The translations under genes were made by a program, and so were the position numbers. Below, piece by piece: positions 351 to 50,296 of a stretch of 64,000 nt of DNA (position 1 is the stretch's first letter; each line of letters starts with the position of its first letter). Location: NCBI GenBank assembly GCA_963921195.1, contig OY992541.1, positions 14,922,644-14,986,643 on the forward strand, written 5' to 3'. The notes beneath the pieces are model-generated. The model did no database searches. It had not been told where the DNA came from and worked only from the letters and a program-made list of their open reading frames with translations. The DNA comes from Pegoplata infirma (lineage: Eukaryota > Arthropoda > Insecta > Diptera > Anthomyiidae).

Positions 351-3300
351 CACCCAAAAAAATAACTAGTGTTAAACAGTCTAATGTGACTTAGGTAAAT
401 TTTTTTTATATTGAGTTCAAGAAATTGCTCAAGTTTTAACTAAATTGTATATGACATTTATTTTGTAAAATAGCGTTGTTTACAATATTAAATTTAACAT
501 ACACAAACTTGAATCTTTTACCTAAGTTTTTTTTTATAAATATAAATAAATTTAATTCGATAAAGTCGACATATTAATGCCACATTGTAAACAACAAATT
601 GACAACAAATTGTCTTTAATTTTTTATAAAATATATGTATGTATGAGGAACTAATTTATTTAATTAATTAATTAAAAAGGTAAGCAAAATAATGTGTTTA
701 TATATTTGATAAACGTATATTAACCAAAATATTAACTTTCAGTTGCAGATGGTGGTGGTTTATCCGAACATTTGCGGCATCCGCCACGCAACTTGTAAAA
801 ATACATTACTTGGAATCTCCACCCAATGTAGGCTGTTTAAATTTTAAGGAACTCCACAAAAAAACATAAAACAATTGGTCTCCGGTTCGCAGTGTTGGTC
901 AATAGTAGACACAAAAGCAGATCCAGAAAATGACTTGAGGTTTTTGATTGCAGATTCCGGTTAGTGATAATTCAGCATCTACAGAAAAAATTCTTTAGAA
1001 AAATAGTCTCACAATATGGTACTTCTATAGAACAATTGTCTCAGAATCTGAAAATTGTTCTAAAGAAAAATTGTCTTAGAATCTATGATTTTTTCTATTG
1101 AAAAATTGTATCAGAACCTGAGACTTTTTCTGTAGAAAAATTGTCACAGAATCTAAAATTTGTTCTGTAGAAAAATTGTGTCAGAATCTGAGTTTTTTTC
1201 TATAGGAAAATTGTTTAAGAATTTACGACTTTTTTATAGAAAAATTGTCTCAAAATGCAAGACTTTTTCTATAGAAAAAATTTCTCAGAAATAGAGAATT
1301 TTTCTATAGAAAAAAATTCTCAGAATTACAGAATTTTTTCTATAGTAAATTTCTGAAAGACAATTTTTCTTTAGAATATTTTTTGAAAGACAATTTTTTT
1401 ATAAAAAAATTTTCAAGCAATATTTCCATAGAAAATATCTCTAAAAACAATTTTTGTATAAAAATTTCTCAAGGACAATTTTTCTATAGAAAATTTCTGA
1501 AAGACAATTCTTCTATAGAAAATTTCTTAAAGACAAGTTTTCTATAAAAATTTTTTTAAATACAATTTTTTATAAAAAATTTCTCATACAATTTTTCTAT
1601 AGAAAATATGTATTAAGACAATTTTTCTTTAAAAATTTCTCAAAGTCAATTTTTCCATAGAAAATTTCTTAAAGACAATTTTTCTCTAGAAATGTCTGAA
1701 AGACAATTTTTCTACAGAAAATTTCTGAAAGACAATTTTTCTATACATACTTTCTAAAAAAACAAAAAAATATCTAAAGAAAAGTTGTTTTTACGAAATT
1801 TTTTACAGAATAATTTTCTATAGAAAAACTGTCTTTTCTATAGAAAAATTATCTTTAAGAAATTTTCTTTACAAAAATTGTCTTTGAAAAAGTTTCTATT
1901 AAAAATTGTCTTTAAAAAATTTTTATAGAAAAAAATGCCTTTAAGACATTTTCTATAGAAAAATTGTATTTGAAAAATTTTCTATTTAAAAATGCCTTTA
2001 AGACATTTTCTATAGAAAAATTGTATTTGAAAAATTTTCTATTTAAAAATTGTCTTTGACAAAGTTTTTATAGAAAAATTGTCTTTAAGAAATTTTCTAT
2101 AGAAAAATTGTCTTTCAGAAATTTTCTATAGAAAAATTGACTTTCAGAAATGTTCTATAGAAAAATTGTCCTTGAGAAATTTTCTATAAAAATTTTTTAT
2201 TAAAATTTTTTCAAAAATTTTCTACAGAAAAATTTTCTTTAAGAAATTTTCTCTGAAAACCTGTCTTTCAGAAATTTTCTATAGAAAAATTTTCTTTCAG
2301 AAATTTTCTGTAAAAAAATTGTCTCAGAAAAAATTTTTTTTCAGAAATTTTCTATAGAAAACCTGTCTTTTAGAAATTTTATATAGAAAAATTGTTTTTC
2401 AGAAATTTTCTGCAGAAAAATTGTCTCTCAGCATTTTTCTTTAAAAAATTGTCTTTGAGAAAGTTTCTATAGATTTTTTTTTTTTTTTTTTAAATTTCTA
2501 TTAAAAAATTATCTTTGAGAAGTTTTCTATATAAAAATTATGTTTGGAAAATTTTCTATAGAAAAATTATCTTTAAAAAATTTTCTATTTAAGAATTGTC
2601 TTTGAGAAATTTTCTGTAGAAAAATTGTCCTTGGGAATTGTCTTTGAGAATTTTTCTATGGAAAATTATTTTTCAAAAATATTCTCTAGAAAAATTTCTC
2701 TCAGAAATTTTCTATAGAAATATTGTCTAAGAAATTTTCTTTAGAATAATTGTCTTTGAGAATTTTTCTGTGAAAATTGCCTTTCAGAAGTATTCTATGG
2801 AAAAATTGTGTTTGAGAAAGTTTCCATAGAAAGATTGTCTTTCAGAAATTTTCTACAGAAAACCTGTCTTTCAGAAATTTTATATAGAAAAACTGTCTTT
2901 GAAAAAGTTTCTGTAGAAAAATTGTCTTTGAGAAATATTTTATAGAAAAATTGTCTTTGAGAAATATTCTATAAAAAAATTGTCTTTCAGAAAATTTCTA
3001 TAAAAAATTTTCTATAGAAAAATTGTTGTTCAAAAATTTTCTATAGAAAAATTAACTTTCAAAATTTTTTTTAGAAAAATTGTCTTTCAGAAATTTTCTA
3101 TAGAAAAATTGTCTTCCAGAAATTTTCTATCGAAAAATTTTCTATAGAAGAATTGTCTTTCAGAAAATTTCTACAGAAAAATTGCCTTTCAGAAATTTTC
3201 TATGAAAAATTATCTTTGTGAAATTTTCTATAGAAAAATTATATTTTTTAATTGGTTTAAAACCAATTTTCTATAGAAAAATTGGTTTTAAAACATTTTC

Positions 3301-4462
3301 TATTAAAGAATTGTCTTTGAGGAATTTTCTGTAGAATAATTGTCTTTGGGAAATTTTCTATAGAAAAATTATGTTTAAAAAATTTTCTATTAAAGAATTA
3401 TCTTTGAGAAATTTTTTATAGAAAAATTGTCTTTGAGAAATTTTTTATAGAAATTTTTTTTAAAAATTGGCTTGAAAAAGTTTTCTATAGAAAAATTGTC
3501 GTCAAAAACTTTCTATAGAAAAATTATCTTTCAGAAATTTTCTATAGAAAAATTGTCAACCAGAAATTTTCTATCGAAAAATTTTCTTTCGGAAATTTTT
3601 AATAGAAAAATTGGCGTTCAGAAAGTTTCTATAGAAAAACTGTCTTTCAGGAATTTGCTATAGAAGAATTGTTTTTTAGAAAATTTCTATAGAAAATTTT
3701 ACTTTAAGAAATTTTCTATAGGAGTATTTTCTTTCAGAAATTTTCTGTAGAAAAATTATTTCTCAGAAATTTTCTATAAAAAAATTGTCTTTGAAAAATT
3801 TTCTATAGAAAAATTGTCTATTAAAAATTTTCTATAGAAGAATTGTCTTTGAGAAATTTTTTAAAAAAATTGTCTGTTAAAAATTTTCTATAGTAAATCT
3901 GTCTTTTAGAAATTTTTTATAGAAAAATAGTCTTTCAGAAATTTTCTATAGAAGAATTGTCTTTCAGAAAGTTTCTATAGAAAAATTGTCTGTCAGAAAT
4001 TTTCTAAAGAAGAATTGTCTTTTTATTTCTATAGAAAAATTGTCTTTGAGAAAGTTTCTATAGAAAAATTTAATTGTCACTGATCATGCTAAGTATGTAT
4101 TTTAAGCTTGTTAGTATTTATATTTTATTATAAAATTGTCCTTTATATTAAAAAAAATATTAAAAATAAATGAAATTAAAATTTATAATATTGAGCATTT
4201 TGTATGGAAGGGGATATATAAAACTATTAAATCAACCTAAAAAAAATACGTTATTTGACCAGTCAAACTGTACCATTTATTTAAATATATTGGCTAAATA
4301 AACAAAATTAAATTTGAAATAATGCTTAAATGCATTTTGTAAGTTTACCTAAGTTGATTCGGGTAATATGCAAAGAAACTTTTCAAGTTGGATTCCTGCG
4401 AAAAATCTTAGGTAAATTATACGCTAAAATTAAATAATCTCACAATTGTTTTTTTTTGGGTG
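351..4462. mobile_element. TA-flanked TIR element carrying a minisatellite
   Basis: The left end reads CACCCAAAAAAA and the right end TTTTTTTGGGTG. Each is flanked by TA (349-350 and 4463-4464), the duplication expected of Tc1/mariner-type or similar non-autonomous elements. The interior holds AT-rich sequence and the large minisatellite at about 970-4075. There is no transposase frame. That the minisatellite grew inside a transposon is inferred from these ends; the TIR is short, so two independent elements remain possible. Confidence 0.55.
970..4075. repeat. 29-32 bp minisatellite with palindromic core
   Basis: About one hundred degenerate units. The common plus-strand form is GAAATTTTCTATAGAAAAAT followed by TGTCTTTCA. 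Each unit holds the 14-bp palindrome TTTTCTATAGAAAA. Units from about 970-1340 carry a longer CAGAATCTGAGAC spacer. Units from about 1345-1780 read in the opposite orientation (GAAAGACAATTTTTC). From about 1800 onward the first orientation returns. Short ORFs here, for example 3472-3663, are repeat artefacts. Confidence 0.9.
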
Positions 4463-34334: not shown

Positions 34335-36071
34335 TCAGAATTTTTCAGTTGCTTTCACAAACTTGAGAAAATCAGACAAGGGAAGTCCATGGACCGTGTC
34401 CATAGACAGAATATCAGAACCCAATATCCGCAGTCTAGCCCTTGAGAACGCTGGACAACAACAGACGTAATGTTCAGTTGTGTCATCATCCTCAAGACAA
34501 GCCACGCATAATGGGTCTGATAAGACACCTAATCTCGTCATATGACGAGCACAGGCATTGTGTCCCGTAATTAAGCCAGTAAGTCTGCGACAGTCTATTC
34601 TACTGAGGCTGAGTAGATAGTTAGCCACTTTCCTGTCTGGCTTAATCACAAAACGTTTGGTATTCTTGCATGCCAACTCATTTGACCATCTTTCCATGAA
34701 AGTTTCTTTCATATGAGAGTTGATCCAACGCATCAGCCATGTCAAGCCAATACCAATTTGAGGTTCCGGATTGTAAGGCATTGTATCAGAGCCAAGATTT
34801 GCCAAAGAGTCGGCAATCTCGTTTCCCCGTATTCCCCTATGACCCGGAACCCACAGAAGACTGACGCTATTCCCACATGAGACCTCATTGAGTCTGCGTC
34901 GACATTCCTGGACAATTTTGGATGAAGTGACTGGAGATTCAAGTGCAATGAGCGCAGCCTGGCTGTCACTGCAAATACTGATTCTCCTATTAATCCATCC
35001 GTTCCCAATTATCCAGGTCGCTACGTCCAAAATAGCAAATATTTCAGTCTGAAATACTGTAGCCATTTTTCCCATAGCAATATAGCATTTGGTCGCATCG
35101 TCCAAATACCAGCCAGACCCAGAGCCATTTAAGTTACTGGATCCATCCGTGTAGAAAGTATCCGTGTAATTTTCCAGTAGGTCTGCTGGGTTTCCCCAGT
35201 CTTCCCTACTCGGAAATATTACAGTAAACTTCCTACCAAACTCGATGCAAGAGGTTGTACTGTCCAAAGGCATAGAAAACATCGGACAAAGTTCCGATAG
35301 CCTATTGAACAGACGACCATGTCCCACATTGTACTCCCCATGCCATGTTCCGCTTTTGCGGAGCCTGCACAAAGATTTCATGGCTTCCCCTTGAATATGT
35401 AAGTCCAAGGGAAGCATATCCAACATAGCGTCCAGAGCTGCGCCTGGGGTGGTGCTCATGACACCAGTAATTCCCAAGGCAGCCGCTCTTTGTAGTCCGT
35501 TTAGCTTGGATCGAATAGTCTTCACCATCGTTCTCGGCCACCAGACTACCGCCGCATACGTCACAATAGGTCTAATTACAGCTATGTACATCCAATGTAC
35601 ATTAGCAGGTCTTAGACCCCATGTCTTTCCAAAAGCTCGCCGACATTGCCAGAAAATCCGAAGTGCCCGTGAAACTTTTTGTTCAACATGTTTTTTCCAC
35701 ATTAGTTTACTATCTAGGGTAACCCCTAAATACTTAACTTCTGTGGACAGTTGAAGAGTTATGCCCTTCAACGTAGGAAGCTGAAGACCCTTATGTTTGG
35801 TTCTTCGCGTGAACAACACGAGTGTTGTCTTATTTGGATTGACAGACAATCCATGTCGATTGCACCAGTTGTCCATCAAGTCAATAACGGTCTGCATTTT
35901 CTTGCATACCAAGTTAAGTGACTTTCCGGATACAAATGCGCACACATCGTCAGCGTATGCCTGTATGTGTACACCTAGAGCTTGTATTTCAACCAAGAGT
36001 GAGTTTACCACAAAACACCACAGCAAAGGAGAGAGAACACCCCCTTGGGGGCAACCTCTACTAAACTCAAC
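34335..36071 (-). pseudogene. LINE C reverse transcriptase C-terminal half plus RNase H
   Basis: The frame is open from the palindrome junction through 34335. It begins with RGCPQGGVLSPLLW (RT domain 5), then AYADDVCAF (catalytic Asp pair) and VNPNKTTLVLF. It goes on to a long connection region with KYLGVTLDSKLMW and ITGVMSTTPGAAL, then an RNase H domain with FYTDGSSNLNGSGSG, TEIFAIL, CSDSQAAL and WVPGHRGIRGNEIADSLA (D-E-D-D set present). Near the C-terminus CVACLEDDDTTEHYVCCC is a Cys-Cys-His-Cys knuckle. The internal ATG at 36026 is not a true start. The ORF itself is undamaged; the gene is dead because the 13.85-kb palindrome splits it and its 5' end is missing. Confidence 0.85.
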
Positions 36072-36106
36072 AGTAGGATGAAAGCGCGGGGTCTAGAAAT
36101 TTATCC

Positions 36107-36640
36107 GAGCATGTATTTCCCCATAAGGATAAATTTTAAATGAGCTAAAAAAGAGCATGTATTTTGTTTTTGTAAAAATATTTTCCCATAGAGATAAAAA
36201 TTTGAAATGAATTAAAAAGAGCATGTATTTTTCCCATAAGGAAAAAAATCATTTTTTTCCCCATTAGGAAAAAAAAAATTAGGAAAAATTTAAATTTTTA
36301 AGAGCAGGTATTTTTCCCATAAGGAAAAATCATGTTTTTTTTTTTATTAGGAAAAATTAGGAAAAATTTTAAATTTAAATTTTTAAGAGCATGTATTTTT
36401 CCCATAAAGAAAAATCATATTTTTTTTATTAGGAAAAATTAGGAAAAATTTTAAATTTAAATTTTTAAGAGCAGGTATTTTTCCCATAAGGAAAAATCAA
36501 ATATTTTTTTTTTAGGAAAAACTAGGAAAAATTTTTAATTTAAATTTTTAAGAGCATGTATTTTTCCCATAAGGAAAAATCACATATTTTTTTTTTTCAT
36601 TAGGAAAAATTTTGGAAAAATTTAGGAAAAATTTTGAAAA
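36107..36640. repeat. Subterminal repeats of the palindromic element, left end
   Basis: Seven copies of GAGCA(T/G)GTATTT start at about 36107, 36153, 36219, 36302, 36387, 36469 and 36552. Most are followed by TTCCCATAAGGAAAAAT. The mirror array is at about 49395-49890. Regular subterminal repeats of this kind often bind a transposase. Confidence 0.8.
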
Positions 36641-39342
36641 TTAAGTTTTAAAATTTAAAAAAGTACTGGGTTATCATAACTAAAAGAATCTATTTAAACC
36701 AATATTTAAACATTTTTTATGAAAAAATGCATTTAAATTTTTTTGTTCTCACAAATTTTTAAACGAGTGCAAAAACAAAATATATTATATTTTTTATTCA
36801 AGAGATTCATATTGCATTCACTTTATTAATAAAGAAAAAAATAAAACATGAAATTTTGTGCTTATTTAAAAAAAACCAAAAACAAGGCACATTATTTTTT
36901 TTCTTTCATAGGTTCATATTACATACATTTACTTTAATAATAAATACTACAAACATACGTCATACTAATAACCAAATCAAATTGCTTGATAATAACTTTT
37001 TGTATTGATGATTTTTTTTTGTTCTTTTGCATTCAAAATAAAAAACAGTTATATTTTTTTTAATTTAAAATTTATTATTTTTCTTAAAAATTGTTTTAAT
37101 CATATTCAATGCTCGTAAATCATTATAATTTAATACTATGGAATATATTTAAAAAAAAAATTTGAATGAAATATTTTTAGTTTTACACTTATTTCTGGAC
37201 TACATGGATTTTCTTTTAATACAAATAATTAAAATTAATGACGTTAATTATCTTCTACGTTAATCAAGAGATGAGTGTACTTCTTCACCATACACGAGTA
37301 ATTTAAATGTTCATATTGCTGTGCATGCAAAATAAATAATGTAACGCGATATTATTTTTATTTTTGTATTTTTTTTTTGTTATATATGGTAGAACATTGA
37401 CTACTACATGTGACTACTTTACATTTCAAGATATTGAGTATGGCCAGTTATTAGAATTGGAAAATAAAATGATTATTATGAATTTTATGTAAGAAATGTA
37501 TTGGTTGTTTTGTTTTAAGTATTTTTTTTTTTATTTTTGATAAAATTTTAAAATAAATTTTTCATCAGTAAATGATTTGAGTGAAATTTGATTTTATTTT
37601 TTTCATGATAAAGATATTTTTTCTATGTTGAACATAATTCTATATGAAATGATGGAAATTTTGTTATTTTCATTGGGTTAGAGAGTAAAATCTTAAAATT
37701 TTTGAAAAATTGAGATTTTTGATTATGAAATTTTTTTTTCTAGAGGGTATTTTATTTTTCATGATATAGGGCATAGATTTTTTTGTTAATAAAACACAAT
37801 GATATTTTTTTCAAAGCACAATGATATTTTTTATTTAAAATTTATGAATTTTATATAAGAAATATATTTTGTTTTTTGAAAAATTATATTTTTTTTATCA
37901 TTGAATGATTTGATTTTTTGTTCAATCGTTGTATACAGTTGTAACGTGATTTACTTATTTTAGTCTCTAACCATCATCATAATCATCGGTTTAAACATCA
38001 TCAGCTAAGAATAAAATTAATTTTTACTAGAAAATCTTAAAGCAAAAAAATTATCATGATTTTATTTTTCATAATATAGAGTCGAGTAATTTAAAAGTTC
38101 ATACTGCTATACATGCAAAATATTTAATGTAATGCGATATTATTTTTATTTTTGTATTTTTTATTTTGTTGACTACTACATATGACTACTTAGCATTTCA
38201 AGATATTGAGTATGGCCAGTTATTAGAATTGTAAAATAAAATGATTATTATGAAGTTTATGTAAGAAATGTATTTTGTTGTTTTGTTTTAAGTATTTTTT
38301 TATTTTTGATGCAATTTTAAAATAAATTTTTCATCAGTAAATGATTTGAGTGATATTTGGTTTTATTTTTTTTTGCATGATAAAGATTTTTTTCTATTTT
38401 GAACAAAATTTTTTATGAAATAACGAACATTTTGTTATTTTCATAAGGTTAGAGAGTAAAATTTTTAAATTTATGAAAAATTTAGATTTTTGATTATGAG
38501 ATTTCATTTATTCTAGAGGGTTTTTTATTTTTCATGATACAGGGTATAGATTCTTTTATGTTAATAAAACATAATGATATTTTTTTTTTTTTTAATACAA
38601 TGATATTTTTTTATTTAAAATTTATGAATTTTATATAAGAAATATATATTGGTGTTTTGAATACAATTTTTTTTTTTTTGAAAAATTATATTTTTTTATC
38701 ATTGTTTATTATTTAGAATTGGAAAATAAAATGATTGTCATGAATTTTATGTAAGAAATGTATTTTGTTATTTTGTTTTAAGTATTTTTTTATTTTTGAT
38801 AAAATTTAAAAATAAATTTTTCATTATTAAATGATTTGAGTGATATTTGATTTTATTTTTTTTTTCATGATAAAGACATTTTAAGGTTAGAGAGTAAAAT
38901 TTTTAAAATTATGAAAAATTTAGATTTTTGATTATGAAATATATTTTTTTCTAGAGGGTTTTTTTATTTTTCATGATGTAGGGTATAGATTTTTTTATGT
39001 TAATAAAACACAATGATATTTTTTTTAACACAATGATATTTTTTTATTTAAAATTTATGAATTTTATATAAGAAATATATTTTGTTGTTTTGAATACATT
39101 TTTTTTTTAAATCTTAAAATAAAAAAAATTATGATGATTTTATTTTTCATAATGTAGAGTAAACAAAGATTTTTTTATGTTGAATATTTTTTTATTTTAT
39201 TATTTTTTACAACTAAAAATTATGATGATTTTATTTTAATAATATAGAGTATACAGAGATGTTTTATGTTGAACATAATTTTACATGATATGCAAAAATT
39301 GTATTATTTTTAACAATTAAAAATTTTATAAAAATACTGTTT

Positions 39343-39684
39343 TTAAAACTTAAAATCTAGTAAATTATCTTCTGAATCAAAAAAATATTCTGCAGGCATT
39401 CCCATCTGGTTGTTAGGGATAAAAAATTCCTGTGATGATTCTGGTGTTTCGGGTATTTCTATATCTTCTGATAATATTTCTTTTTTTCCATAACTTTCTA
39501 GAGTTTCGGGTATATCTTCTGATAATTTCATTTCTTGCCCTCGTTCTATATTATTTTCAGTTTCCTCTTTAGGGAAAAGGTCTCTTTCACAACTGATGTT
39601 GCAAATCATTATATGTTGTTCAAAATTAAAAACACCTTCAAGAATTTTATAACACTCGCTGCACTCGATATTCATTTTCTCCAT
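39343..39684 (-). CDS. 113-aa C2HC zinc-finger protein, left-arm copy
   Basis: I do not recognise this protein. Residues C8, C11, H24 and C28 give the spacing C-x2-C-x12-H-x3-C of a single classical-type zinc finger, with L15 and F21 at core hydrophobic positions and a further Cys at 32. The remaining ~80 residues are rich in Glu, Asp, Ser and Pro and contain two similar blocks, LSEDIPETLES and LSEDIEIPETPES. No signal peptide or membrane segment. The start follows an A-rich leader, in the only long frame of the arm. It reads outward from the palindrome core, in mirror image to 40499-40840, with an identical translation. A DNA-binding or regulatory role in the element is plausible but unproven. 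No catalytic motif is seen. Confidence 0.65.
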   Translation of the reverse strand: MEKMNIECSECYKILEGVFNFEQHIMICNISCERDLFPKEETENNIERGQEMKLSEDIPETLESYGKKEILSEDIEIPETPESSQEFFIPNNQMGMPAEYFFDSEDNLLDFKF

Positions 39685-39977
39685 AACTATACTTTTTGTT
39701 TTTAATTATTTTTTGAAACTTCTTTAATTGCTTGTTAAAGATTGACTAAATTTGGTATATGTTCGTACTTCAAATCAAAATTCCAATTTGTTTTAAATTT
39801 AACTTTTATTGCTTACTCCTCAAAAATACATTTAGTTTTATGTAAATATATGTTGTACCCGAGTAAACAAGTTTTTTTTTATATAATTATATATAATTTA
39901 ATATAATTTTATCAAATTATAAAAAATAAAATATTTTTCAATTAATGAAATGATTTTTCTTAAAATTGATATTATAG

Positions 39978-40207
39978 GACAAATAATTTTTATATTTTAA
40001 GGAAAGAAATATGTTTTTGTTTTTCATAAGGAAAAATTTATTATTTTTTTGTTGGTTGCTTTACATTTCAAGATATTGAGTATGATTATTTATTAGAATA
40101 ATAAAATGGATATTTGATGATACAAAAAAAAATAGTTTTAGTTATATTTTAAATAAAAACTCGAATCATACGGTTTAATTTTTTGTTTGTTTTATTTATA
40201 ATTTTAA
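39978..40207. other. Unique core between the palindrome arms
   Basis: About 230 bp not mirrored across the axis. It includes CATTTCAAGATATTGAGTATG, a variant of the arm repeat, and a stray CATAAGGAAAAAT. It lies about 290 bp upstream of both 113-aa ORFs, so each ORF would be driven by identical arm sequence, or both by the core. Confidence 0.7.
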
Positions 40208-40498
40208 TATAATATTAATTTTAAGAAAAATCATTTCATTAATTGAAAAATATTTTATTTTTTATAATTTGATAAAATTATATTAAATTATATATAATTA
40301 TATAAAAAAAACTTGTTTACTCGGGTACAACATATATTTACATAAAACTAAATGTATTTTTGAGGAGTAAGCAATAAAAGTTAAATTTAAAACAAATTGG
40401 AATTTTAATTTGAAGTACGAACATATACCAAATTTAGTCAATCTTTAACAAGCAATTAAAGAAGTTTCAAAAAATAATTAAAAACAAAAAGTATAGTT

Positions 40499-40840
40499 AT
40501 GGAGAAAATGAATATCGAGTGCAGCGAGTGTTATAAAATTCTTGAAGGTGTTTTTAATTTTGAACAACATATAATGATTTGCAACATCAGTTGTGAAAGA
40601 GACCTTTTCCCTAAAGAGGAAACTGAAAATAATATAGAACGAGGGCAAGAAATGAAATTATCAGAAGATATACCCGAAACTCTAGAAAGTTATGGAAAAA
40701 AAGAAATATTATCAGAAGATATAGAAATACCCGAAACACCAGAATCATCACAGGAATTTTTTATCCCTAACAACCAGATGGGAATGCCTGCAGAATATTT
40801 TTTTGATTCAGAAGATAATTTACTAGATTTTAAGTTTTAA
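40499..40840 (+). CDS. 113-aa C2HC zinc-finger protein, right-arm copy
   Basis: Same protein as 39343-39684, and the nucleotide sequence looks the same in the coding part where I compared it. Finger ligands C8, C11, H24, C28; acidic Ser/Pro-rich tail ending DNLLDFKF. It is transcribed away from the core, so the two copies form a divergent pair with mirror-image upstream DNA. The frame is preserved in both arms although the surrounding arm is AT-rich and non-coding. This suggests either selection on the protein or recent homogenisation of the arms. It could also be a captured host fragment. Confidence 0.65.
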   Translation: MEKMNIECSECYKILEGVFNFEQHIMICNISCERDLFPKEETENNIERGQEMKLSEDIPETLESYGKKEILSEDIEIPETPESSQEFFIPNNQMGMPAEYFFDSEDNLLDFKF

Positions 40841-42098
40841 AAACAGTATTTTTATAAAATTTTTAATTGTTAAAAATAATACAATTTTTGCATATCATGT
40901 AAAATTATGTTCAACATAAAACATCTCTGTATACTCTATATTATTAAAATAAAATCATCATAATTTTTAGTTGTAAAAAATAATAAAATAAAAAAATATT
41001 CAACATAAAAAAATCGTTGTTTACTCTACATTATGAAAAATAAAATCATCATAATTTTTTTTATTTTAAGATTTAAAAAAAAAATGTATTCAAAACAACA
41101 AAATATATTTCTTATATAAAATTCATAAATTTTAAATAAAAAAATATCATTGTGTTAAAAAAAATATCATTGTGTTTTATTAACATAAAAAAATCTATAC
41201 CCTACATCATGAAAAATAAAAAAACCCTCTAGAAAAAAATATATTTCATAATCAAAAATCTAAATTTTTCATAATTTTAAAAATTTTACTCTCTAACCTT
41301 AAAATGTCTTTATCATGAAAAAAAAAAATAAAATCAAATATCACTCAAATCATTTAATAATGAAAAATTTATTTTTAAATTTTATCAAAAATAAAAAAAT
41401 ACTTAAAACAAAATAACAAAATACATTTCTTACATAAAATTCATGACAATCATTTTATTTTCCAATTCTAAATAATAAACAATGATAAAAAAATATAATT
41501 TTTCAAAAAAAAAAAAATTGTATTCAAAACACCAATATATATTTCTTATATAAAATTCATAAATTTTAAATAAAAAAATATCATTGTATTAAAAAAAAAA
41601 AATATCATTATGTTTTATTAACATAAAAGAATCTATACCCTGTATCATGAAAAATAAAAAACCCTCTAGAATAAATGAAATCTCATAATCAAAAATCTCA
41701 ATTTTTCATAAATTTAAAAATTTTACTCTCTAACCTTATGAAAATAACAAAATGTTCGTTATTTCATAAAAAATTTTGTTCAAAATAGAAAAAATATCTT
41801 TATCATGCAAAAAAAAATAAAACCAAATATCACTCAAATCATTTACTGATGAAAAATTTATTTTAAAATTGCATCAAAAATAAAAAAATACTTAAAACAA
41901 AACAACAAAATACATTTCTTACATAAAATTCATAATAATCATTTTATTTTACAATTCTAATAACTGGCCATACTCAATATCTTGAAATGCTAAGTAGTCA
42001 TATGTAGTAGTCAACAAAATAAAAAATACAAAAATAAAAATAATATCGCATTACATTAAATATTTTGCATGTATAGCAGTATGAACTTTTAAATTACT

Positions 42099-43800
42099 CG
42101 ACTCTATATTATGAAAAATAAAATCATGATAATTTTTTTGCTTTAAGATTTTCTAGTAAAAATTAATTTTATTCTTAGCTGATGATGTTTAAACCGATGA
42201 TTATGATGATGGTTAGAGACTAAAATAAGTAAATCACGTTACAACTGTATACAACGATTGAACAAAAAATCAAATCATTCAATGATAAAAAAAATATAAT
42301 TTTTCAAAAAACAAAATATATTTCTTATATAAAATTCATAAATTTTAAATAAAAAATATCATTGTGCTTTGAAAAAAATATCATTGTGTTTTATTAACAA
42401 AAAAATCTATGCCCTATATCATGAAAAATAAAATACCCTCTAGAAAAAAAAATTTCATAATCAAAAATCTCAATTTTTCAAAAATTTTAAGATTTTACTC
42501 TCTAACCCAATGAAAATAACAAAATTTCCATCATTTCATATAGAATTATGTTCAACATAGAAAAAATATCTTTATCATGAAAAAAATAAAATCAAATTTC
42601 ACTCAAATCATTTACTGATGAAAAATTTATTTTAAAATTTTATCAAAAATAAAAAAAAAATACTTAAAACAAAACAACCAATACATTTCTTACATAAAAT
42701 TCATAATAATCATTTTATTTTCCAATTCTAATAACTGGCCATACTCAATATCTTGAAATGTAAAGTAGTCGCATGTAGTAGTCAATGTTCTACCATATAT
42801 AACAAAAAAAAAATACAAAAATAAAAATAATATCGCGTTACATTAATTATTTTGCATGCACAGCAATATGAACATTTAAATTACTCGTGTATGGTGAAGA
42901 AGTACACTCATCTCTTGATTAACGTAGAAGATAATTAACGTCATTAATTCGACTCTATATTATGAAAAATAAAATCATGATAATTTTTTTGCTTTAAGAT
43001 TTTCTAGTAAAAATTAATTTTATTCTTAGCTGATGATGTTTAAACCGATGATTATGATGATGGTTAGAGACTAAAATAAGTAAATCACGTTACAACTGTA
43101 TACAACGATTGAACAAAAAATCAAATCATTCAATGATAAAAAAAATATAATTTTTCAAAAAACAAAATATATTTCTTATATAAAATTCATAAATTTTAAA
43201 TAAAAAATATCATTGTGCTTTGAAAAAAATATCATTGTGTTTTATTAACAAAAAAATCTATACCCTATATCATGAAAAATAAAATACCCTCTAGAAAAAA
43301 AAATTTCATAATCAAAAATCTCAATTTTTCAAAAATTTTAAGATTTTACTCTCTAACCCAATGAAAATAACAAAATTTCCATCATTTCATATAGAATTAT
43401 GTTCAACATAGAAAAAATATCTTTATCATGAAAAAAATAAAATCAAATTTCACTCAAATCATTTACTGATGAAAAATTTATTTTAAAATTTTATCAAAAA
43501 TAAAAAAAAAAAATACTTAAAACAAAACAACCAATACATTTCTTACATAAAATTCATAATAATCATTTTATTTTCCAATTCTAATAACTGGCCATACTCA
43601 ATATCTTGAAATGTAAAGTAGTCACATGTAGTAGTCAATGTTCTACCATATATAACAAAAAAAAAAAAATACAAAAATAAAAATAATATCGCGTTACATT
43701 AATTATTTTGCATGCACAGCAATATGAACATTTAAATTACTCGTGTATGGTGAAGAAGTACACTCATCTCTTGATTAACGTAGAAGATAATTAACGTCAT
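42099..43800. repeat. Tandem duplication of ~850 bp in the right arm
   Basis: The segment beginning CGACTCTATATTATGAAAAA at about 42098 and ending CGTCATTAATT at about 42948 is repeated directly at about 42948-43805, with small differences (for example A-run lengths, GTCGCATG versus GTCACATG). The left arm has a single copy. It arose after arm formation. Confidence 0.8.
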
Positions 43801-44680
43801 TAATTTTAATTATTTGTATTAAAAGAAAATCCATGTAGTCCAGAAATAAGTGTAAAACTAAAAATATTTCATTCAAATTTTTTTTTTAAATATTTTCCAT
43901 AGTATTAAATTAAATTATAATGATTTACGAGCATTGAATATGATTAAAACAATTTTTAAGAAAAATAATAAATTTTAAATTAAAAAAAATATAACTGTTT
44001 TTTATTTTGAATGCAAAAGAACAAAAAAAAAATCATCAATACAAAAAGTTATTATCAAGCAATTTGATTTGGTTATTAGTATGACGTATGTTTGTAGTAT
44101 TTATTATTAAAGTAAATGTATGTAATATGAACCTATGAAAGAAAAAAAATAATGTGCCTTGTTTTTGGTTTTTTTTAAATAAGCACAAAATTTCATGTTT
44201 TATTTTTTCTTTATTAATAAAAAAAAAGTCTGGCAACACCGTCATGAAATAACGCGGAAAATATTGTTGTTAAGAAAGTGAATAGAAAAAATATTAAAAT
44301 TATAAATTAAAGTGGTTTTTATTAACTAAAAATATACAAAAACTTTTTTAAAATAATACTGATTGTTTTTTGTTAATGTTGTCATTAATAATATAAACCA
44401 ATTTGTATAATAAAAACAAACGAAAAAAAAAAAATACAGTACCTTTTGTGTTGTGGCAAACATCAAACACTTTGTAAACATTACTTGCATTACTAGTTAT
44501 AAACAATTTGCAATACACCGGCTTTTCAATAAAAGTATACAGAGGACAAAGCAAAATCTCCAAAAAGATCACTGTTCTTCCAATTGGCAATAAAATAATT
44601 TTTGTACTGAGACTCCACAGTTTTATACTGAATCAGTTGTTTACATCAGAGCTGGGATTACTCAATTCTACAATTTTACT

Positions 44681-45682
44681 ATGGCTCCACATGCTGAAAC
44701 TTACAAATGCCCAAAATGCAGTAAAAATTGTACCAAAACTCAAAAAAGTATTGGCTGCGCTTATTGTGAAGAATATTTTCACTATAATTGTGCAAAATTA
44801 TCTTTGGAGCAGTATGATTTTTTACTCAAGAATAAGATTGTAAAATTTATTTGTGTTACATGTTCACGTATGCCAAAATTTTGCAATGTGCAGGAGGAAC
44901 TGAGAAGTGGATTTGCGACATTGACTGCTTCTTTGGAAAAAGAAATTGAAAGTAAATTTCTTGAAAATAAACGTCTGCTTGAGGAGCAATTAAATACTGG
45001 TTTAAAAGCTATAGAAGCCAAATTTGTAGAGTTTACTAATAATAACTCCGGAGAGACATCAGAAAATGTTGAGAACCTGGAAGCTGATTTAAAACAATGT
45101 TATAACATGATAAAAATTTTTGATGAAGTAGCTACTCAAAAAATTTCTCGTTTGGAAAGCCAAAACACCATTTTTCAAAGACGTTTGAATAGATCAGACA
45201 TCGTTATAAAGGGTTTGCCTAAAAAATTAAAAAATTTAAGAAAACCAATAATAAAAATTGCTTCGTTATGCAATGTTCGGATATATTATTCTGATATCCA
45301 GCATTGTACTTATTTTGAAGGAGCAAAATCGGTGCTTGTTAAATTTAATTCTGTACAAATTCGTGACGCAATAATGATAAACTATCGCAAGGGTTGTAAT
45401 ATTATACAAAAGGATGTTTTAGGCGGTAATTCTACTACAGCCATTTTTTTAAATGATCACCTTACTCCCGCAGCCAAAGAGCTTATTGCCGTTTGTAAAA
45501 AATTAAAAAATAAAAACAAAATAAAAAAATATATCTACAAAAACTACGATATTCCCAAGGCAGAAATTGTATTCCTTAATGGTAATTCTAAGGTGCTTAA
45601 CTTCGATGAGTGTAATAATATCCTTGAGGAGGAAGACGATTTATCTTCAACTTCACTTGAATCAAGTGGTAGCTGGCTTTAG
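44681..45682 (+). CDS. LINE B ORF1 protein, PHD-finger nucleic-acid-binding
   Basis: 333 aa. ORF1 proteins of this kind bind the element RNA and act as chaperones. Residues ~9-60 carry a PHD-like finger: YKCPKCSKNC, GCAYCEEYFHYNC and FICVTC supply the C4HC3 ligands. Residues ~75-175 are a coiled coil (ASLEKEIESKFLENKRLLEE; ADLKQCYNM...). Residues ~175-290 look like the RRM-type domain (SDIVIKGLPKKL; SVLVKFNSVQIRDAI), followed by the C-terminal segment with IFLNDHLTPAAKELI. The stop is followed by 365 bp before ORF2. The start is the first ATG in frame after the 5' UTR. No frameshift or stop. Confidence 0.85.
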   Translation: MAPHAETYKCPKCSKNCTKTQKSIGCAYCEEYFHYNCAKLSLEQYDFLLKNKIVKFICVTCSRMPKFCNVQEELRSGFATLTASLEKEIESKFLENKRLLEEQLNTGLKAIEAKFVEFTNNNSGETSENVENLEADLKQCYNMIKIFDEVATQKISRLESQNTIFQRRLNRSDIVIKGLPKKLKNLRKPIIKIASLCNVRIYYSDIQHCTYFEGAKSVLVKFNSVQIRDAIMINYRKGCNIIQKDVLGGNSTTAIFLNDHLTPAAKELIAVCKKLKNKNKIKKYIYKNYDIPKAEIVFLNGNSKVLNFDECNNILEEEDDLSSTSLESSGSWL

Positions 45683-46047
45683 GCGAAGCGGCTTGTTTTT
45701 TTTTATATACATATTAAATTTTTCTTTTTTTCTCCGTTTGAAACAACTTTTTTTTTTCTTAAGCAGGAATGTTTGGTGCCATAATTTTTGTATATGGTGT
45801 TTTATTTTAATAACTGTCTTTTGATAGTTAAAATCTTTTTTCTACTAGCCCCTGCTTAAAAGAAAAAATTGTAGATTCAATCATAATTGTGATATTTATT
45901 ATAATTTTTATATTTTTTTATAATTTATTTTCATACTTTTTTTATAATACTTGTAACATTTGATTCGTTGCTTTTGCTAAACTTAAAAATTTGAATCAAA
46001 AATCTTATTTTTCTATTTTCTTCTTTTCTTTCTTTTACTTTTAAATC

Positions 46048-48894
46048 ATGAATCTCAATTTAGGCACTGTAACCAGTAATAGTTCCTTCTTTGAGTCACA
46101 ATTACGTAATTGTGGCACTAATTTAAATTTTGGTCACCTTAATCTGCAAAGTTTTGCTATAGGCTCTTCTACCAAACTTGATGAGTTGAGAAATGTTCTT
46201 GGCAAAGGCTTATTTGATATTTTAGGAATATCTGAGACCTGGTTATCCGAGGAAATATCTTCTAATGCCGTATGTATCCCTGGTTATGTACTTTGTCGAA
46301 GTGATCGTCCTAAAACTGTTGGTGGTGGCGTTGCTTTGTATGTAGCTAAGAATATAAAATTTAGGGTTATACTGAGGGATATAAAGTATGGGATAAACAG
46401 AAAAAAGAACAAGACTTATGTTGCTAGTGAGCTGTTGTTTATTGAAATTATAATTTTGGGTCGTAAAATTCTTGTTGGAGTTGTTTATCTTCCTCATGGG
46501 CACTTAGCCCCATTTGAGAAAAGTGCTGTGGATGTGTTAACTAAATACTCTGATATTGTTATATTAGGAGATTTTAATAACAATATGTTTAATGCTACAA
46601 AGGCACATTCTGTAAGGGAAATGTGTAGTAGATTAAATGTAAGATGCCATCATAACTGTTTACCAACTCATATTAGTGTAAGACACGGTTCTACCTCATT
46701 AATTGATTTTTTGCTTTTATCTCCCTCTATGGGTGTTGTTCAGTCCGGTCAGGCACAGATTCCTGGCACTTCTCGTCATTCTTTTATTTTTGCGTCTTTG
46801 AATATCAACTCACCACGTATTGATGAGTTTGTGGAATATTTTGATTATAAAAATATTGATTTTTCGTCTCTTGAGTCAATTGCTGCCTCTTGCGATTTTA
46901 ACAGTATATTTTATACTGCTAATGTTGATGATCAGGCAAATTTATTATATTCTTTTTTATGTAAAATGCATGGTGCTGTACCATTAAAGAGGCGTAAGAT
47001 TTGTAGTTCTTTTGATAACACTTGGTTTAATTCCTTGGAAATCAGGAATAGTTTGTCCGTTCGTGATGCAGCTTATCGTTCTTACTTAAATAATAGGAAT
47101 GAAGCAAACTGGAGGATTTTTTGCCGGTTAAGAAATCGTGCAAAAACTGTAATTCGTAATTGTAAACGAAGGGCGCATGCTCAAATGTTTAGCAACAAAG
47201 ACTCAAAGCAAATATGGAATTTGCTGCGTGAAAATGGTCTTGATGATAATTCATCAACTATTGGTGAAATTGATGTTGATAATTTAAATCGCTACTTTTC
47301 CTCTAATCAGGGCTGTAATTCTGTAGACACTCCACTTTTATCTGATGATTTAGTTAATGGGGGTTTCTCATTCCGTAGTGTTGATATAAATGAGTTATTT
47401 GTTGCACTACAATCAGTTAAGTCTAATGCTGTTGGGTGTGATGGTTTCCCAACTAAATTTTTTAAATTGGTTTTCCCCTACATTGCTAGATATATTTTAC
47501 ATTTTGTTAACAATATTATAACTACAGCGATGTTTCCTTCAGGTTGGAAAATCGGGAGAGTAGTTCCTATAAGGAAAGTTGGCGAGTCTGATGATATGGA
47601 GAATCTACGTCCTATTTCTATTTTTCGAGTACTTTCCAAAGTGGTTGAAATTTTGCTGAGAAACCAGCTTTTAACTCATATTAATGAAATTTCGTTTTTC
47701 AACGATGCCCAATATGGGTTTAGGTGTAAGAGAAATACAACATCTCTTCTTTTGGGTTTGACTGACACTATTAGAAAATCCACAAGTACTGGCAATGTCA
47801 GTGTTCTTTTATCAATTGACCTAACAAAGGCTTTTGATAAAGTTGATTACAACATTTTAATTTCTAAATTGAATCGTGATTTAGGACTTTCTGTAATGTC
47901 ATGTAAACTAATTTTGTCCTATCTAAATGGTAGGTCTCAGTATGTTTCAATTGGCACAAAGTATTCGAAAGTTTTACCAGTAAGAAGTGGAGTACCTCAG
48001 GGTTCGGTATTAGGACCATTGTTATTTGATATATATATTAATGACATTTTCAGTTGTATTCATTTTCCTTCTTGTAATTCGTTTGCTTATGCAGATGACT
48101 TGTTTTTCTTATTTAAAGGGGAAAGGCAGTTCTCTGATGTTCTGCAACGAATGATTAATTATAGTGTTTCCAATATTAATGACTGGATGGAGGATAATAA
48201 ATTATTTATTAATGCCTCTAAGACGAAGGCTATGTGTTTTGGATCCCCTCAACAGGATTTGATAATTAATATTAATGGTAGTAGAATTCCATTTGTAGAT
48301 AAAATGAAGTGTCTTGGTTTGTGGTTGGATTTCAAACTGAATTTTGATAAACACATCAACTCTGTTGTATCCAGGGTAAACTATGCCCTGCGGAGACTTT
48401 ATAACATTAATTTAATCTTACCCTTGAATGTTAAAGCCATGATGGTTCATTCTTTAGTCATGCCAATCTTTTTATATGGTATTGAAGTGTACTCTGGTAC
48501 TCTAGGTTATAATATGAAGAAACTTGAGAAGTTGTTTAATAGAGTTATTCGTTATCTCTACTCATTGAGAAGACGTAGTCATGTATCGGTGTATGTTTCT
48601 AGATTTTTGGGTAGTTCATTTTTGAACTACGTAAAATCTAGGATTTTGATTTGTTTTTATAATGCGTATAAAAATAGAAACATGACCTACTTGATTTCAT
48701 TTTTCACTTTTAACCGTTCTAGACGTAATTGCCAACTTCGGATTCCAAAATTAACCTCAATTTTGGAACGATCATTTCACGTAAGAGTAGCTCGTATTTT
48801 TAATAAATTGCCTACTAAACTCAAGACCTTTAAATTTTCATACTGCACCTTTAAACGCAAAATTTTGATTCATCTTAAAGATAAAAATTTGTAA
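46048..48894 (+). CDS. LINE B ORF2 protein, endonuclease-reverse transcriptase
   Basis: 948 aa, usual length for the group. The N-terminal AP-type endonuclease shows GHLNLQSF, LGISETWLSE, GGGVALYV, VYLPHG, VILGDFNNN and LIDFLLLS. At the usual SDH position it has GTSRHSFIF, so the Asp before the catalytic His is replaced by Arg, an oddity that may impair or alter nicking. The reverse transcriptase has IGRVVPIRKVG, NLRPISIFRVLSKVVE, LLSIDLTKAFDKVDY, SGVPQGSVLGPLLF, SFAYADDLFFLF and INASKTKAMCFG, all expected motifs including the YADD site. The C-terminal thumb/connection ends without RNase H or a clear Cys knuckle. No internal stop; it is inferred to be recently inserted. Confidence 0.9.
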   Translation: MNLNLGTVTSNSSFFESQLRNCGTNLNFGHLNLQSFAIGSSTKLDELRNVLGKGLFDILGISETWLSEEISSNAVCIPGYVLCRSDRPKTVGGGVALYVAKNIKFRVILRDIKYGINRKKNKTYVASELLFIEIIILGRKILVGVVYLPHGHLAPFEKSAVDVLTKYSDIVILGDFNNNMFNATKAHSVREMCSRLNVRCHHNCLPTHISVRHGSTSLIDFLLLSPSMGVVQSGQAQIPGTSRHSFIFASLNINSPRIDEFVEYFDYKNIDFSSLESIAASCDFNSIFYTANVDDQANLLYSFLCKMHGAVPLKRRKICSSFDNTWFNSLEIRNSLSVRDAAYRSYLNNRNEANWRIFCRLRNRAKTVIRNCKRRAHAQMFSNKDSKQIWNLLRENGLDDNSSTIGEIDVDNLNRYFSSNQGCNSVDTPLLSDDLVNGGFSFRSVDINELFVALQSVKSNAVGCDGFPTKFFKLVFPYIARYILHFVNNIITTAMFPSGWKIGRVVPIRKVGESDDMENLRPISIFRVLSKVVEILLRNQLLTHINEISFFNDAQYGFRCKRNTTSLLLGLTDTIRKSTSTGNVSVLLSIDLTKAFDKVDYNILISKLNRDLGLSVMSCKLILSYLNGRSQYVSIGTKYSKVLPVRSGVPQGSVLGPLLFDIYINDIFSCIHFPSCNSFAYADDLFFLFKGERQFSDVLQRMINYSVSNINDWMEDNKLFINASKTKAMCFGSPQQDLIININGSRIPFVDKMKCLGLWLDFKLNFDKHINSVVSRVNYALRRLYNINLILPLNVKAMMVHSLVMPIFLYGIEVYSGTLGYNMKKLEKLFNRVIRYLYSLRRRSHVSVYVSRFLGSSFLNYVKSRILICFYNAYKNRNMTYLISFFTFNRSRRNCQLRIPKLTSILERSFHVRVARIFNKLPTKLKTFKFSYCTFKRKILIHLKDKNL

Positions 48895-49924
48895 AGTTCT
48901 TTTTTGTTTTATAGATTTTTTTTTGTTATGTCATGTTTTTTCTCGTTACTAAACAGTGCTTTTTTTCTTCTCTTTAATTCTTTATTACTATCTCAAATTC
49001 TTTTTCTTCTTTCTATAGGTTAATTTTAAATTTTCTGATCTTGATAATATAAATTTAAGTGTTTTTATTATTACATTTTATTATACCGTTGTAGTATTTA
49101 TTTACATAGAGCAGTATTTTTGTAACTACATATGGCCCTTTGGGCTCAGTTATTTTGAAGAATAATAAATAAATAAATAAAATAAATAAATGCAATATGA
49201 ATCTCTTGAATAAAAAATATAATATATTTTCGTTTAAAAATTTGTGAGAACAAAAAAATTTAAATGCATTTTTTCATAAAAAATGTTTAAATATTGGTTT
49301 AAATAGATTCTTTTAGTTATGATAACCCAGTACTTTTTTAAATTTTAAAACTTAATTTTCAAAATTTTTCCTAAATTTTTCCAAAATTTTTCCTAATGAA
49401 AAAAAAAATATGTGATTTTTCCTTATGGGAAAAATACATGCTCTTAAAAATTTAAATTAAAAATTTTTCCTAGTTTTTCCTAAAAAAAAAATATTTGATT
49501 TTTCCTTATGGGAAAAATACCTGCTCTTAAAAATTTAAATTTAAAATTTTTCCTAATTTTTCCTAATAAAAAAAATATGATTTTTCTTTATGGGAAAAAT
49601 ACATGCTCTTAAAAATTTAAATTTAAAATTTTTCCTAATTTTTCCTAATAAAAAAAAAACATGATTTTTCCTTATGGGAAAAATACCTGCTCTTAAAAAT
49701 TTAAATTTTTCCTAATTTTTTTTTTCCTAATGGGGAAAAAAATGATTTTTTTTTCCTTATGGGAAAAATACATGCTCTTTTTAATTCATTTCAAATTTTT
49801 ATCTCTATGGGAAAATATTTTTACAAAAACAAAATACATGCTCTTTTTTAGCTCATTTAAAATTTATCCTTATGGGGAAATACATGCTCGGATAAATTTC
49901 TAGACCCCGCGCTTTCATCCTACT

Positions 49925-50296
49925 CTCAACCGTTACTTTTGTGCCCCACTCATCCTCAGCCGTCAACAATCTCCGGGAGAGCATAGAATGAATCCACTTG
50001 ACTAGAACTGGATCCACGCCATGCAATTCAGCCGAAGTTTTCATAGAATCGAAAGTAGCATTATCAAAAGCGCCCTCAATATCAACAAAAACACCCAGAG
50101 TATAGTCTTGTTTGTCAATGCCCTTCTTAATATTGACCACAAGATCGTGAAGTGCCGACTCACAAGATCTACCACTCTGATACGCGTGTTGCTGACTATT
50201 TAGGGGGCATTCGATTAATGCTACTGACCTAATGAATTTCTCAACCATTCGCTCAAGACTTTTCAGTAGAAAGGATGATAAACTGATTGGTCTAAT
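49925..50296 (-). pseudogene. LINE C reverse transcriptase N-terminal fragment
   Basis: Upstream half of the split LINE C frame. It reads DIRPISLSSFLLKSLERM (RT domain 2a), then SQQHAYQSGRSCESALHDLV, GVFVDIEGAFDNATFDSM (domain 3/A with catalytic Asp) and EDEWGTKVTVE up to the palindrome. It continues at 36071 with FSRGCPQGG. The sequence before domain 2 is absent because of 5' truncation at the DINE junction. Confidence 0.85.

What the first reader, a model, noticed from the sequence alone, without database searches (positions are those of the whole stretch)
36072..49924. 13.85-kb palindromic transposon with a protein-coding gene in each inverted arm
Inverted arms of ~3.9 kb around a ~230-bp core, ends AGTAGG...CCTACT, and 6-bp duplication CTCAAC. 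The host LINE reading frame closes perfectly when the element and one CTCAAC are removed. Fold-back elements normally lack genes in the arms; here both arms carry the same 113-aa ORF. 6 bp and AG...CT ends are known for Polinton/Maverick elements, but none of their genes is here. It could be a new non-autonomous or self-mobilising palindrome family.
Basis: partly seen in the sequence, partly recalled or inferred. Interest (0 to 1): 0.9.

Follow-up and report, generated by a model that had tools for sequence, protein, structure and literature searches.

The report
Palindromic snap-back offspring of Polinton transposons
The mirror-image DNA element is real, and appears to be a crippled copy of a giant virus-like transposon (Polinton) made when a copying strand folded back at a short natural mirror sequence and copied itself, which makes the hidden way these elements replicate open to testing.

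Summary
The window carries a palindrome of about 8.0 kb (two 3.9-kb arms, 231-nt core, perfect 6-bp duplication). A ~5-kb LINE and an 0.85-kb tandem duplication in the right arm enlarge it to 13.85 kb.

It is not a new superfamily. Its outermost part matches the protease-side end of ~13-kb Polinton/adintovirus-like elements in the same genome, which encode integrase, ATPase, protease and PolB. The 113-aa gene recurs there in 19 outward-pointing inverted pairs. Larger palindromes hold protease and capsid pieces in both arms; palindromes of other Polinton families hold PolB in both. Eight of eight 113-aa pairs read at both edges have perfect 6-bp duplications.

The key finding is where the mirror turns. 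At each of three turning points with an unfolded relative, it turns at a short inverted repeat already present in relatives (14-15/16, 10 and 9 bp; loops 231, 5 and 947 nt). The sites differ, so palindromes formed repeatedly, before integration. One palindrome occupies two loci.

Best reading: one Polinton end copied twice by snap-back during extrachromosomal strand-displacement (probably protein-primed) replication, then integrated in trans. The polymerase step is inferred. My paper searches found no palindromic Polinton.

The parts
36066..36071 (.). left target-site duplication CTCAAC
36072..39976 (+). left arm of the palindrome
36072..37182 (+). part of the arm homologous to the protease-side end of the ~13-kb Polinton family (arm 1-306 with element 1-302 at 90%; arm 285-1111 with element 52-871 at 81%); begins AGTAGGATGAAAGCGCGG
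36217..36623 (+). 83-bp-period tandem array inside the end region (mirrored at 49373-49779)
39343..39684 (-). 113-aa ORF, left copy (C-x2-C-x12-H-x3-C finger, acidic tail)
   Evidence: no Pfam or NCBIfam family; no homologue listed in the protein database
39961..39976 (+). left half of the native inverted repeat at the turning point (TAAAATTGATATTATA; 15 of 16 pairs in the window)
39977..40207 (.). 231-nt core, collinear with the arm interior of related copies, so it is the single-strand loop of the fold
40208..40223 (+). right half of the native inverted repeat (TATAATATTAATTTTA); after it the window departs from its relatives and runs back along its own left arm
40208..44221 (-). right arm, inner part, including the ~0.85-kb tandem duplication 42099-42949 / 42950-43805
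40499..40840 (+). 113-aa ORF, right copy
44222..49180 (+). LINE inserted later into the right arm (frames 44594-45682 and 46045-48894 with endonuclease and RT domains); not part of the native element
49181..49924 (-). right arm, outer part, ending ...CCGCGCTTTCATCCTACT
49925..49930 (.). right target-site duplication CTCAAC

Best explanation
The window element is a non-autonomous palindromic derivative of a Polinton/Maverick (adintovirus-like) element. Shown: it is one end of such an element (terminal repeat plus the next ~3.9 kb with a small terminal gene) present twice in mirror image; the mirror turns at a short inverted repeat that unfolded relatives already carry; the palindrome was complete before it integrated, because a 6-bp target duplication flanks two copies of the same end. 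Inferred: during extrachromosomal strand-displacement replication that starts at the element's end (protein-primed, as the family's PolB implies), a growing or displaced strand came off, snapped back on itself at the short inverted repeat, and was extended back to its own 5' end, giving a hairpin whose loop is the core. Replication through the hairpin gave a linear palindrome with an intact terminus at both ends. An integrase supplied in trans by intact relatives with the same 18-bp ends inserted it with a 6-bp duplication.
For: Ends: the 301-bp left end has 65 matches in the genome, many as inverted pairs. In the four ~13-kb elements read it bounds Polinton-type genes; on one of them (C506) Pfam finds C5 protease, rve integrase with weak chromodomain, and a Pox_A32-type ATPase above or near cut-off. 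The window arm matches the protease-side end beyond the 716-bp terminal repeat (to 871), the other end only to 716, so one particular end is used. PolB: the 153-aa fragment from a palindrome matches those elements at 52% and, at 57%, frames that pass PF03175. Integrase is 62% identical to that of Drosophila-associated adintovirus 2. Duplications: 15 of 17 elements read at both edges have a perfect 6-bp duplication, including 8 of 8 with a 113-aa pair. Turning points: window, 14-15 of 16 pairs native in 3 of 7 relatives, loop 231; C5:196716385, 10 bp exact in 4 of 5 relatives and one mismatch in the fifth, loop 5; C3:145683000 region and C5:192878450, 9 bp native in 4 of 4 relatives, loop 947. 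Random junctions in a relative's arm give a stem of 9 bp or more in 0.028% and 15/16 in 0 of 2,000,000 trials; freedom in placing the junction may raise the former about tenfold. Generality: palindromes of other Polinton families with PolB in both arms: C280 (arms 99.6%) and C1:236375090 (arms 100% over at least 3.7 kb).
Against: No autonomous copy of the exact parent (with the 113-aa gene and a full gene set) was found; the parent is inferred from arms of larger palindromes, and its PolB fragment has no other close copy (next 63%). In 3 of 7 relatives of the window's turning point the left half of the inverted repeat is replaced (9-10 of 16) and in one the right half is absent. Several turning points (C4:111999104, C627-type, C2:186130275, C2:85, C2:108, C280, C1:236) could not be or were not tested for a native repeat. 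C280 shows no matching target duplication and C4:133123800 has a truncated right end. No terminal protein, single-stranded intermediate or replication was observed. DNA breakage near an inverted repeat followed by host fold-back repair of an extrachromosomal element would leave the same scar.
Confidence: 0.72

Rival explanations
1. Same element and same origin from a Polinton end, but the fold was made by host repair: a double-strand break or resection next to a short inverted repeat on the extrachromosomal DNA, intrastrand annealing, and fill-in by host polymerases.
For: Fold-back at short or widely spaced inverted repeats in single-stranded DNA is documented in yeast and human genomes (PMC10164571, abstract; PMC7467729, PMC3907307, PMC6103520, search listing). 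The scar would be identical.
Against: Loops of 231 and 947 nt need long single strands; a strand-displacing, end-initiated polymerase supplies them directly. Nothing here separates the two otherwise.
Confidence: 0.17
2. A fold-back transposon of an established cut-and-paste superfamily (FB/Galileo-like, P superfamily, or Mutator/Foldback) that happens to have long arms.
For: Long, internally repetitive inverted arms are typical of such elements (PMC3573991, PMC3169594, PMC4079207: search listing only).
Against: 6-bp duplication in 15 of 17, end sequence and outer ~0.87 kb shared with elements that encode integrase, C5 protease, packaging ATPase and PolB; capsid and protease pieces in arms of relatives.
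Confidence: 0.03
3. Assembly or library artefact (inverted chimeric reads).
For: Palindromes are prone to it; three short contigs (C46, C629, C431) carry unpaired copies, and C46 ends about 4 kb beyond its copy.
Against: Left and right flanks are different halves of one host site with a 6-bp duplication, not mirror images; the window's arms differ by a LINE and a duplication in one arm only; one palindrome with the same turning point sits at two sites with different duplications.
Confidence: 0.03
4. The palindromes are one ancient long-TIR element that simply spread, not repeated fold-backs.
For: Some palindromes did spread: C3:145663928 and C5:192878450 share turning point (99.4-99.5% over 3.9 kb) and an arm-specific substitution plus 3 gap columns, with 0 columns contradicting; C627, C6:16028781 and C2:145419 align across the same centre at 80-85%.
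Against: At least three turning points lie at different depths from the 113-aa gene and each matches a different native inverted repeat; other Polinton families have their own.
Confidence: 0.05

Closest known systems
Polinton/Maverick elements (self-synthesising, virus-like transposons); adintoviruses
   Same: 6-bp target duplications, AGT... ends, long terminal inverted repeats; homologous outermost end; relatives with integrase, C5 protease, packaging ATPase, PolB and double-jelly-roll capsid fragments. 6-bp duplications and (AG)3 or (AGT)2 end motifs are described for vertebrate Mavericks (PMC8097293, passages and part of the Discussion).
   Different: The window copy has none of the core genes; it holds one end twice, with a small unclassified terminal gene in each arm.
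Adeno-associated virus snap-back genomes
   Same: Self-complementary defective genomes holding one end, symmetric or with an unpaired loop, explained by template switching (PMC8235507, passages).
   Different: AAV uses rolling-hairpin replication without a protein-primed polymerase (partly recalled); snap-back genomes there are packaged, here they are integrated and inherited.
Adenovirus symmetric recombinants (SYREC) and other palindromic defective adenovirus genomes (recalled, not found)
   Same: One viral end duplicated as an inverted repeat in a protein-primed replicon.
   Different: Not seen in any call here; those carry host DNA in the middle as I recall it.
FB/Galileo-type fold-back transposons of flies
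   Same: Long, internally repeated inverted arms with a short unique core.
   Different: Different ends, duplication length and relatives; normally no gene in the arms (recalled).

Membership tests
Polinton/Maverick | 6-bp target-site duplication | tested here: met
   CTCAAC in the window; 15 of 17 elements of this end type or related palindromes
Polinton/Maverick | AG...CT ends within terminal inverted repeats | tested here: met
   AGTAGGATGAAAGCGCGG at both ends, shared with ~13-kb elements
Polinton/Maverick | retrovirus-like integrase in the element | tested here: not met
   absent from the window copy; present in the end-sharing element C506
[quoted passage not shown]
   absent from the window copy; present in relatives
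Polinton/Maverick | C5 protease, packaging ATPase, capsid proteins | tested here: not met
   absent from the window copy; protease and ATPase in C506; protease-like protein in both arms of three larger palindromes, by similarity to frames that pass PF00770 (the protein itself does not reach Pfam); capsid fragment PF21738 in both arms of C2:85
non-autonomous Polinton derivative | shares ends and sub-terminal DNA with an autonomous-looking Polinton of the same genome | tested here: met
   1-306 at 90%, 285-1111 at 81%
non-autonomous Polinton derivative | mobilised in trans by that Polinton's integrase | not testable with these tools
   inferred from identical 18-bp ends and 6-bp duplications only
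FB/Galileo fold-back transposons | P-superfamily ends and duplication length (7-9 bp, recalled) | tested here: not met
   6-bp duplications
snap-back defective genome (as a mechanism) | one replicon end duplicated in mirror image, turning at a native inverted repeat | tested here: met
   three of three turning points that had an unfolded relative; other turning points untested

The most novel reading that the evidence does not exclude
These palindromes are a heritable class of Polinton satellites: snap-back genomes that are born again and again from Polinton ends, integrate, spread as palindromes, and act back on their parents, for example by transcribing self-complementary RNA from the mirrored arms (a ready source of small interfering RNAs against the intact element) or by competing for its polymerase and integrase, as defective interfering particles do. 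They would also be the first genomic footprint of a strand-displacing, end-primed Polinton replication cycle.
Probability: 0.15. Interest if true: 0.9.

Novelty: new variant of a known kind. Interest (0 to 1): 0.72.

Why it matters
Polintons are thought to replicate outside the chromosome by protein-primed synthesis, but as far as I know (recalled) that cycle has not been watched. Palindromes that turn at native inverted repeats and were complete before integration are a written record of long single strands and of a strand switching onto itself in that stage. Each gives a turning point, a loop length and, from the divergence of its arms, a clock. They can be counted in any long-read genome, so the replication model becomes testable by sequence alone. 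They also give a route by which a virus-like element continually makes its own defective, double-stranded-RNA-capable satellites.

Tried and rejected
New superfamily: rejected, because the ends and outer arm belong to Polinton relatives.

Function of the 113-aa protein: no Pfam, NCBIfam or database homologue. Its finger resembles the N-terminal finger of Polinton PolB (21 columns, hhalign probability 14.6%, two-sequence profile); too weak to claim. Selection: pooled dN/dS-type ratio 0.30 over 19 distinct ORFs of 26 read (six further 113-aa loci fetched or available were not used), and 13 synonymous against 6 non-synonymous changes between the window and C2:155947616. Within one palindromic lineage the pattern looks neutral (C627 against C2:145419: 2 synonymous, 11 non-synonymous). 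So constraint is visible between lineages but is not shown for the palindromes themselves.

Mandatory arm homogenisation at each transposition: not supported, since C3:145663928 and C5:192878450 share an arm-specific substitution. But arms within a copy are 99-100% alike while copies with the same centre differ by 15-20%, so some homogenisation, or repeated folding at the same place, is likely. Unresolved.

C46 as an unfolded parent: the contig ends about 4.2 kb beyond the ORF, so it tells nothing. PF03175 gave only 4 hits, none inside the end pairs, because the PolB of the ~13-kb family is too diverged for that model. Rfam found nothing in the window. Papers: searches returned no palindromic Polinton among the titles and abstracts listed; only PMC8235507, PMC8097293, PMC10164571 and PMC8363768 were opened, and only in part.
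Full report
What is there. The window element runs from 36072 to 49924 between two copies of CTCAAC. Its arms are near-perfect inverted copies around a 231-nt core. The right arm was later enlarged by a LINE (44222-49180; endonuclease and RT domains) and an 0.85-kb tandem duplication. Without these the element is about 8.0 kb. The host site is inside the RT/RNase H frame of another LINE, and that frame is open across the joined flanks. Each arm carries the same 113-aa ORF, read outward.

It is a family member with Polinton ends. The first 301 bp match 65 places in the 1.38-Gb genome of the window (only 40 candidates were scored, so this is a lower bound). Many are inverted pairs 2.3 to 33 kb apart. 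I read both edges of 14 such pairs: 13 have a perfect 6-bp duplication, and the fourteenth (C4:133123800) has a truncated right end. With the window and C2:186123603-186136948 (TGCATT; ends AGTAGTAGTAATGTG...) that is 15 of 16; C280 (ends AGTAGTAGTAATTAGC...) shows no matching duplication, so 15 of 17 in all. Four ~13-kb elements with these ends carry a Polinton-like gene set. On the C506 copy Pfam finds Peptidase_C5 (7.9e-6, above cut-off), rve (1.6e-15, above), Pox_A32 (3.1e-5, above), Adeno_IVa2 (5.9e-4, below) and a chromodomain (1e-4, below). Its 429-aa candidate capsid protein reaches no Pfam cut-off, and its PolB does not reach PF03175; PolB identity rests on a 52% match to a fragment that also matches, at 57%, frames that do pass PF03175. 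The best named relative of its integrase is that of Drosophila-associated adintovirus 2, 62% identical (that virus is a 13.3-kb contig placed near Drosophila polintons, PMC8363768, passages).

The window arm is homologous to one particular end. Against the C506 element, arm positions 1-306 match 1-302 (90%) and 285-1111 match 52-871 (81%) at the protease-side end. At the other end the match stops at 716, where that element's terminal repeat stops (its two ends are 99.7% alike over 716 columns).

The 113-aa gene marks a larger set of palindromes. It has 60 matches in the genome. By my count 43 of them fall into 19 inverted pairs, in every pair the left copy on the minus strand and the right on the plus strand, 1.2 to 22.5 kb apart. 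The other 17 are unpaired, fragmentary or diverged, five of them (C5:187840727, C629, C2:155947616, C431, C46) full-length at 90% identity or more. Inward of it, some palindromes carry a second unclassified 112-aa ORF, others a protease-like ORF identical in both arms (three of three checked). The protease-like protein does not itself reach Pfam, but matches, at 32-41%, two frames that pass PF00770. C2:85026700-85043000 also has a double-jelly-roll capsid fragment (PF21738, 7.8e-15) with the same translation in both arms. C2:108100000-108118500 has a PolB fragment in its middle only. Palindromes outside this set carry PolB in both arms: C280:90312-105194 and C1:236374000-236382381 at least, arms 100% over 3.7 kb, with the same stops in both PolB copies. 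One search suggests three more inverted PolB pairs (C138, C3:80489211, C1:200537395), not read.

Where the mirror turns. This is the decisive evidence. The window's core and the last stretch of its left arm align collinearly with the arm interior of relatives. After TATAATATTAATTTTA (40208-40223) the relatives continue into new sequence, while the window runs back along its own left arm. That 16-mer pairs with 39961-39976 at 15 of 16. In the relatives the two halves pair at 15, 14 and 14 of 16 in L037, L034 and L039; in L036, L026 and L033 the left half is replaced (9-10 of 16); in L032 the right half was not found. Second case: C5:196714684-196718087 turns inside the 112-aa ORF at TCTCAAAATG-ATTTC-CATTTTGAGA. 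The same 10-bp stem and 5-nt loop stand in 4 of 5 unfolded relatives and with one mismatch in the fifth. Third case: the palindrome shared by C3:145663928 and C5:192878450 turns at ATATTGAGT...ACTCAATAT, 947-nt loop; both halves are native in 4 of 4 relatives, and C627 is collinear at 98.3% up to that point. Random junctions in a relative's arm give stems of 9 bp or more in 0.028% and 15 of 16 in none of 2,000,000. Freedom in placing the junction could raise the first figure about tenfold; the conclusion stands. Other turning points had no unfolded relative or were not tested.

Order of events. Because the same Polinton end stands on both sides and a 6-bp duplication flanks the whole, the palindrome existed before integration. 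Because turning points differ, palindromes were made more than once. Because one palindrome lies at two sites with different duplications (ATCACT and GAAGAT) and shares an arm-specific substitution and three gap columns with none contradicting, palindromes can also move, or be integrated more than once, as palindromes.

How it most likely works. A strand initiated at the terminus and extended inward, then released and folded back at a short inverted repeat, would be copied back to its own start. The result is a hairpin with the terminus at its open end, and replication through it gives a linear palindrome with a terminus at each end. That explains why the terminus is always included, why the core is collinear with one arm, and why loops can be long: widely spaced inverted repeats fold readily in long single-stranded DNA (PMC10164571, abstract). 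Snap-back genomes of AAV are the nearest described product (PMC8235507, passages). Protein priming for Mavericks is the accepted inference from PolB and end motifs (PMC8097293, passages). The polymerase, the terminal protein and the trans-acting integrase are inferences here; host fold-back repair is the main rival.

The small gene. The 113-aa protein has a C-x2-C-x12-H-x3-C finger and an acidic tail. It has no listed homologue. A 64%-identical relative exists at C1:97976862, with dS 0.41 and dN 0.20 against the window. Constraint shows between lineages, not within the one palindromic lineage examined. I take it for the terminal gene of the parent Polinton, duplicated passively.

Verdict. Real, not an artefact; a palindromic non-autonomous Polinton derivative; new as a variant as far as nine listed paper searches show, and unusually informative about replication.

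Noticed in passing
G000 C3:207519568-207533604 (L051, L052): A Polinton-ended element whose outermost part is matched twice at each end, about 581 bp apart, in mirror fashion: the two ends seem to be copied from each other.
   Followed up: partly
L025 (C1:127960436-127962757): A 2.3-kb element with the same ends and a 6-bp duplication (TGCGAC) that keeps the protease ORF and the end of the capsid-like ORF: a deletion derivative, with no palindrome noticed.
   Followed up: partly
L043/L044/L076/L077 (C280:90312-105194): Palindrome with a long PolB-like frame in both arms and a core made of ~21-bp repeats; no matching target duplication.
   Followed up: partly
L078/L079 (C1:236374000-236382381): Two arms identical over at least 3.7 kb although their PolB copies carry the same stop codons: folded from an already broken template, or homogenised later.
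   Followed up: no
G000 contigs C46, C629, C431: Unpaired 113-aa copies lie on short contigs; C46 ends about 4 kb beyond its copy, perhaps because palindromes break assemblies.
   Followed up: no
window 44222-49180: LINE with two long open frames (362 and 949 aa) inserted in the right arm; the matching left-arm stretch suggests a few target bases were lost rather than duplicated.
   Followed up: partly
window 1335-4070: Long AT-rich minisatellite with a 29-bp period.
   Followed up: no
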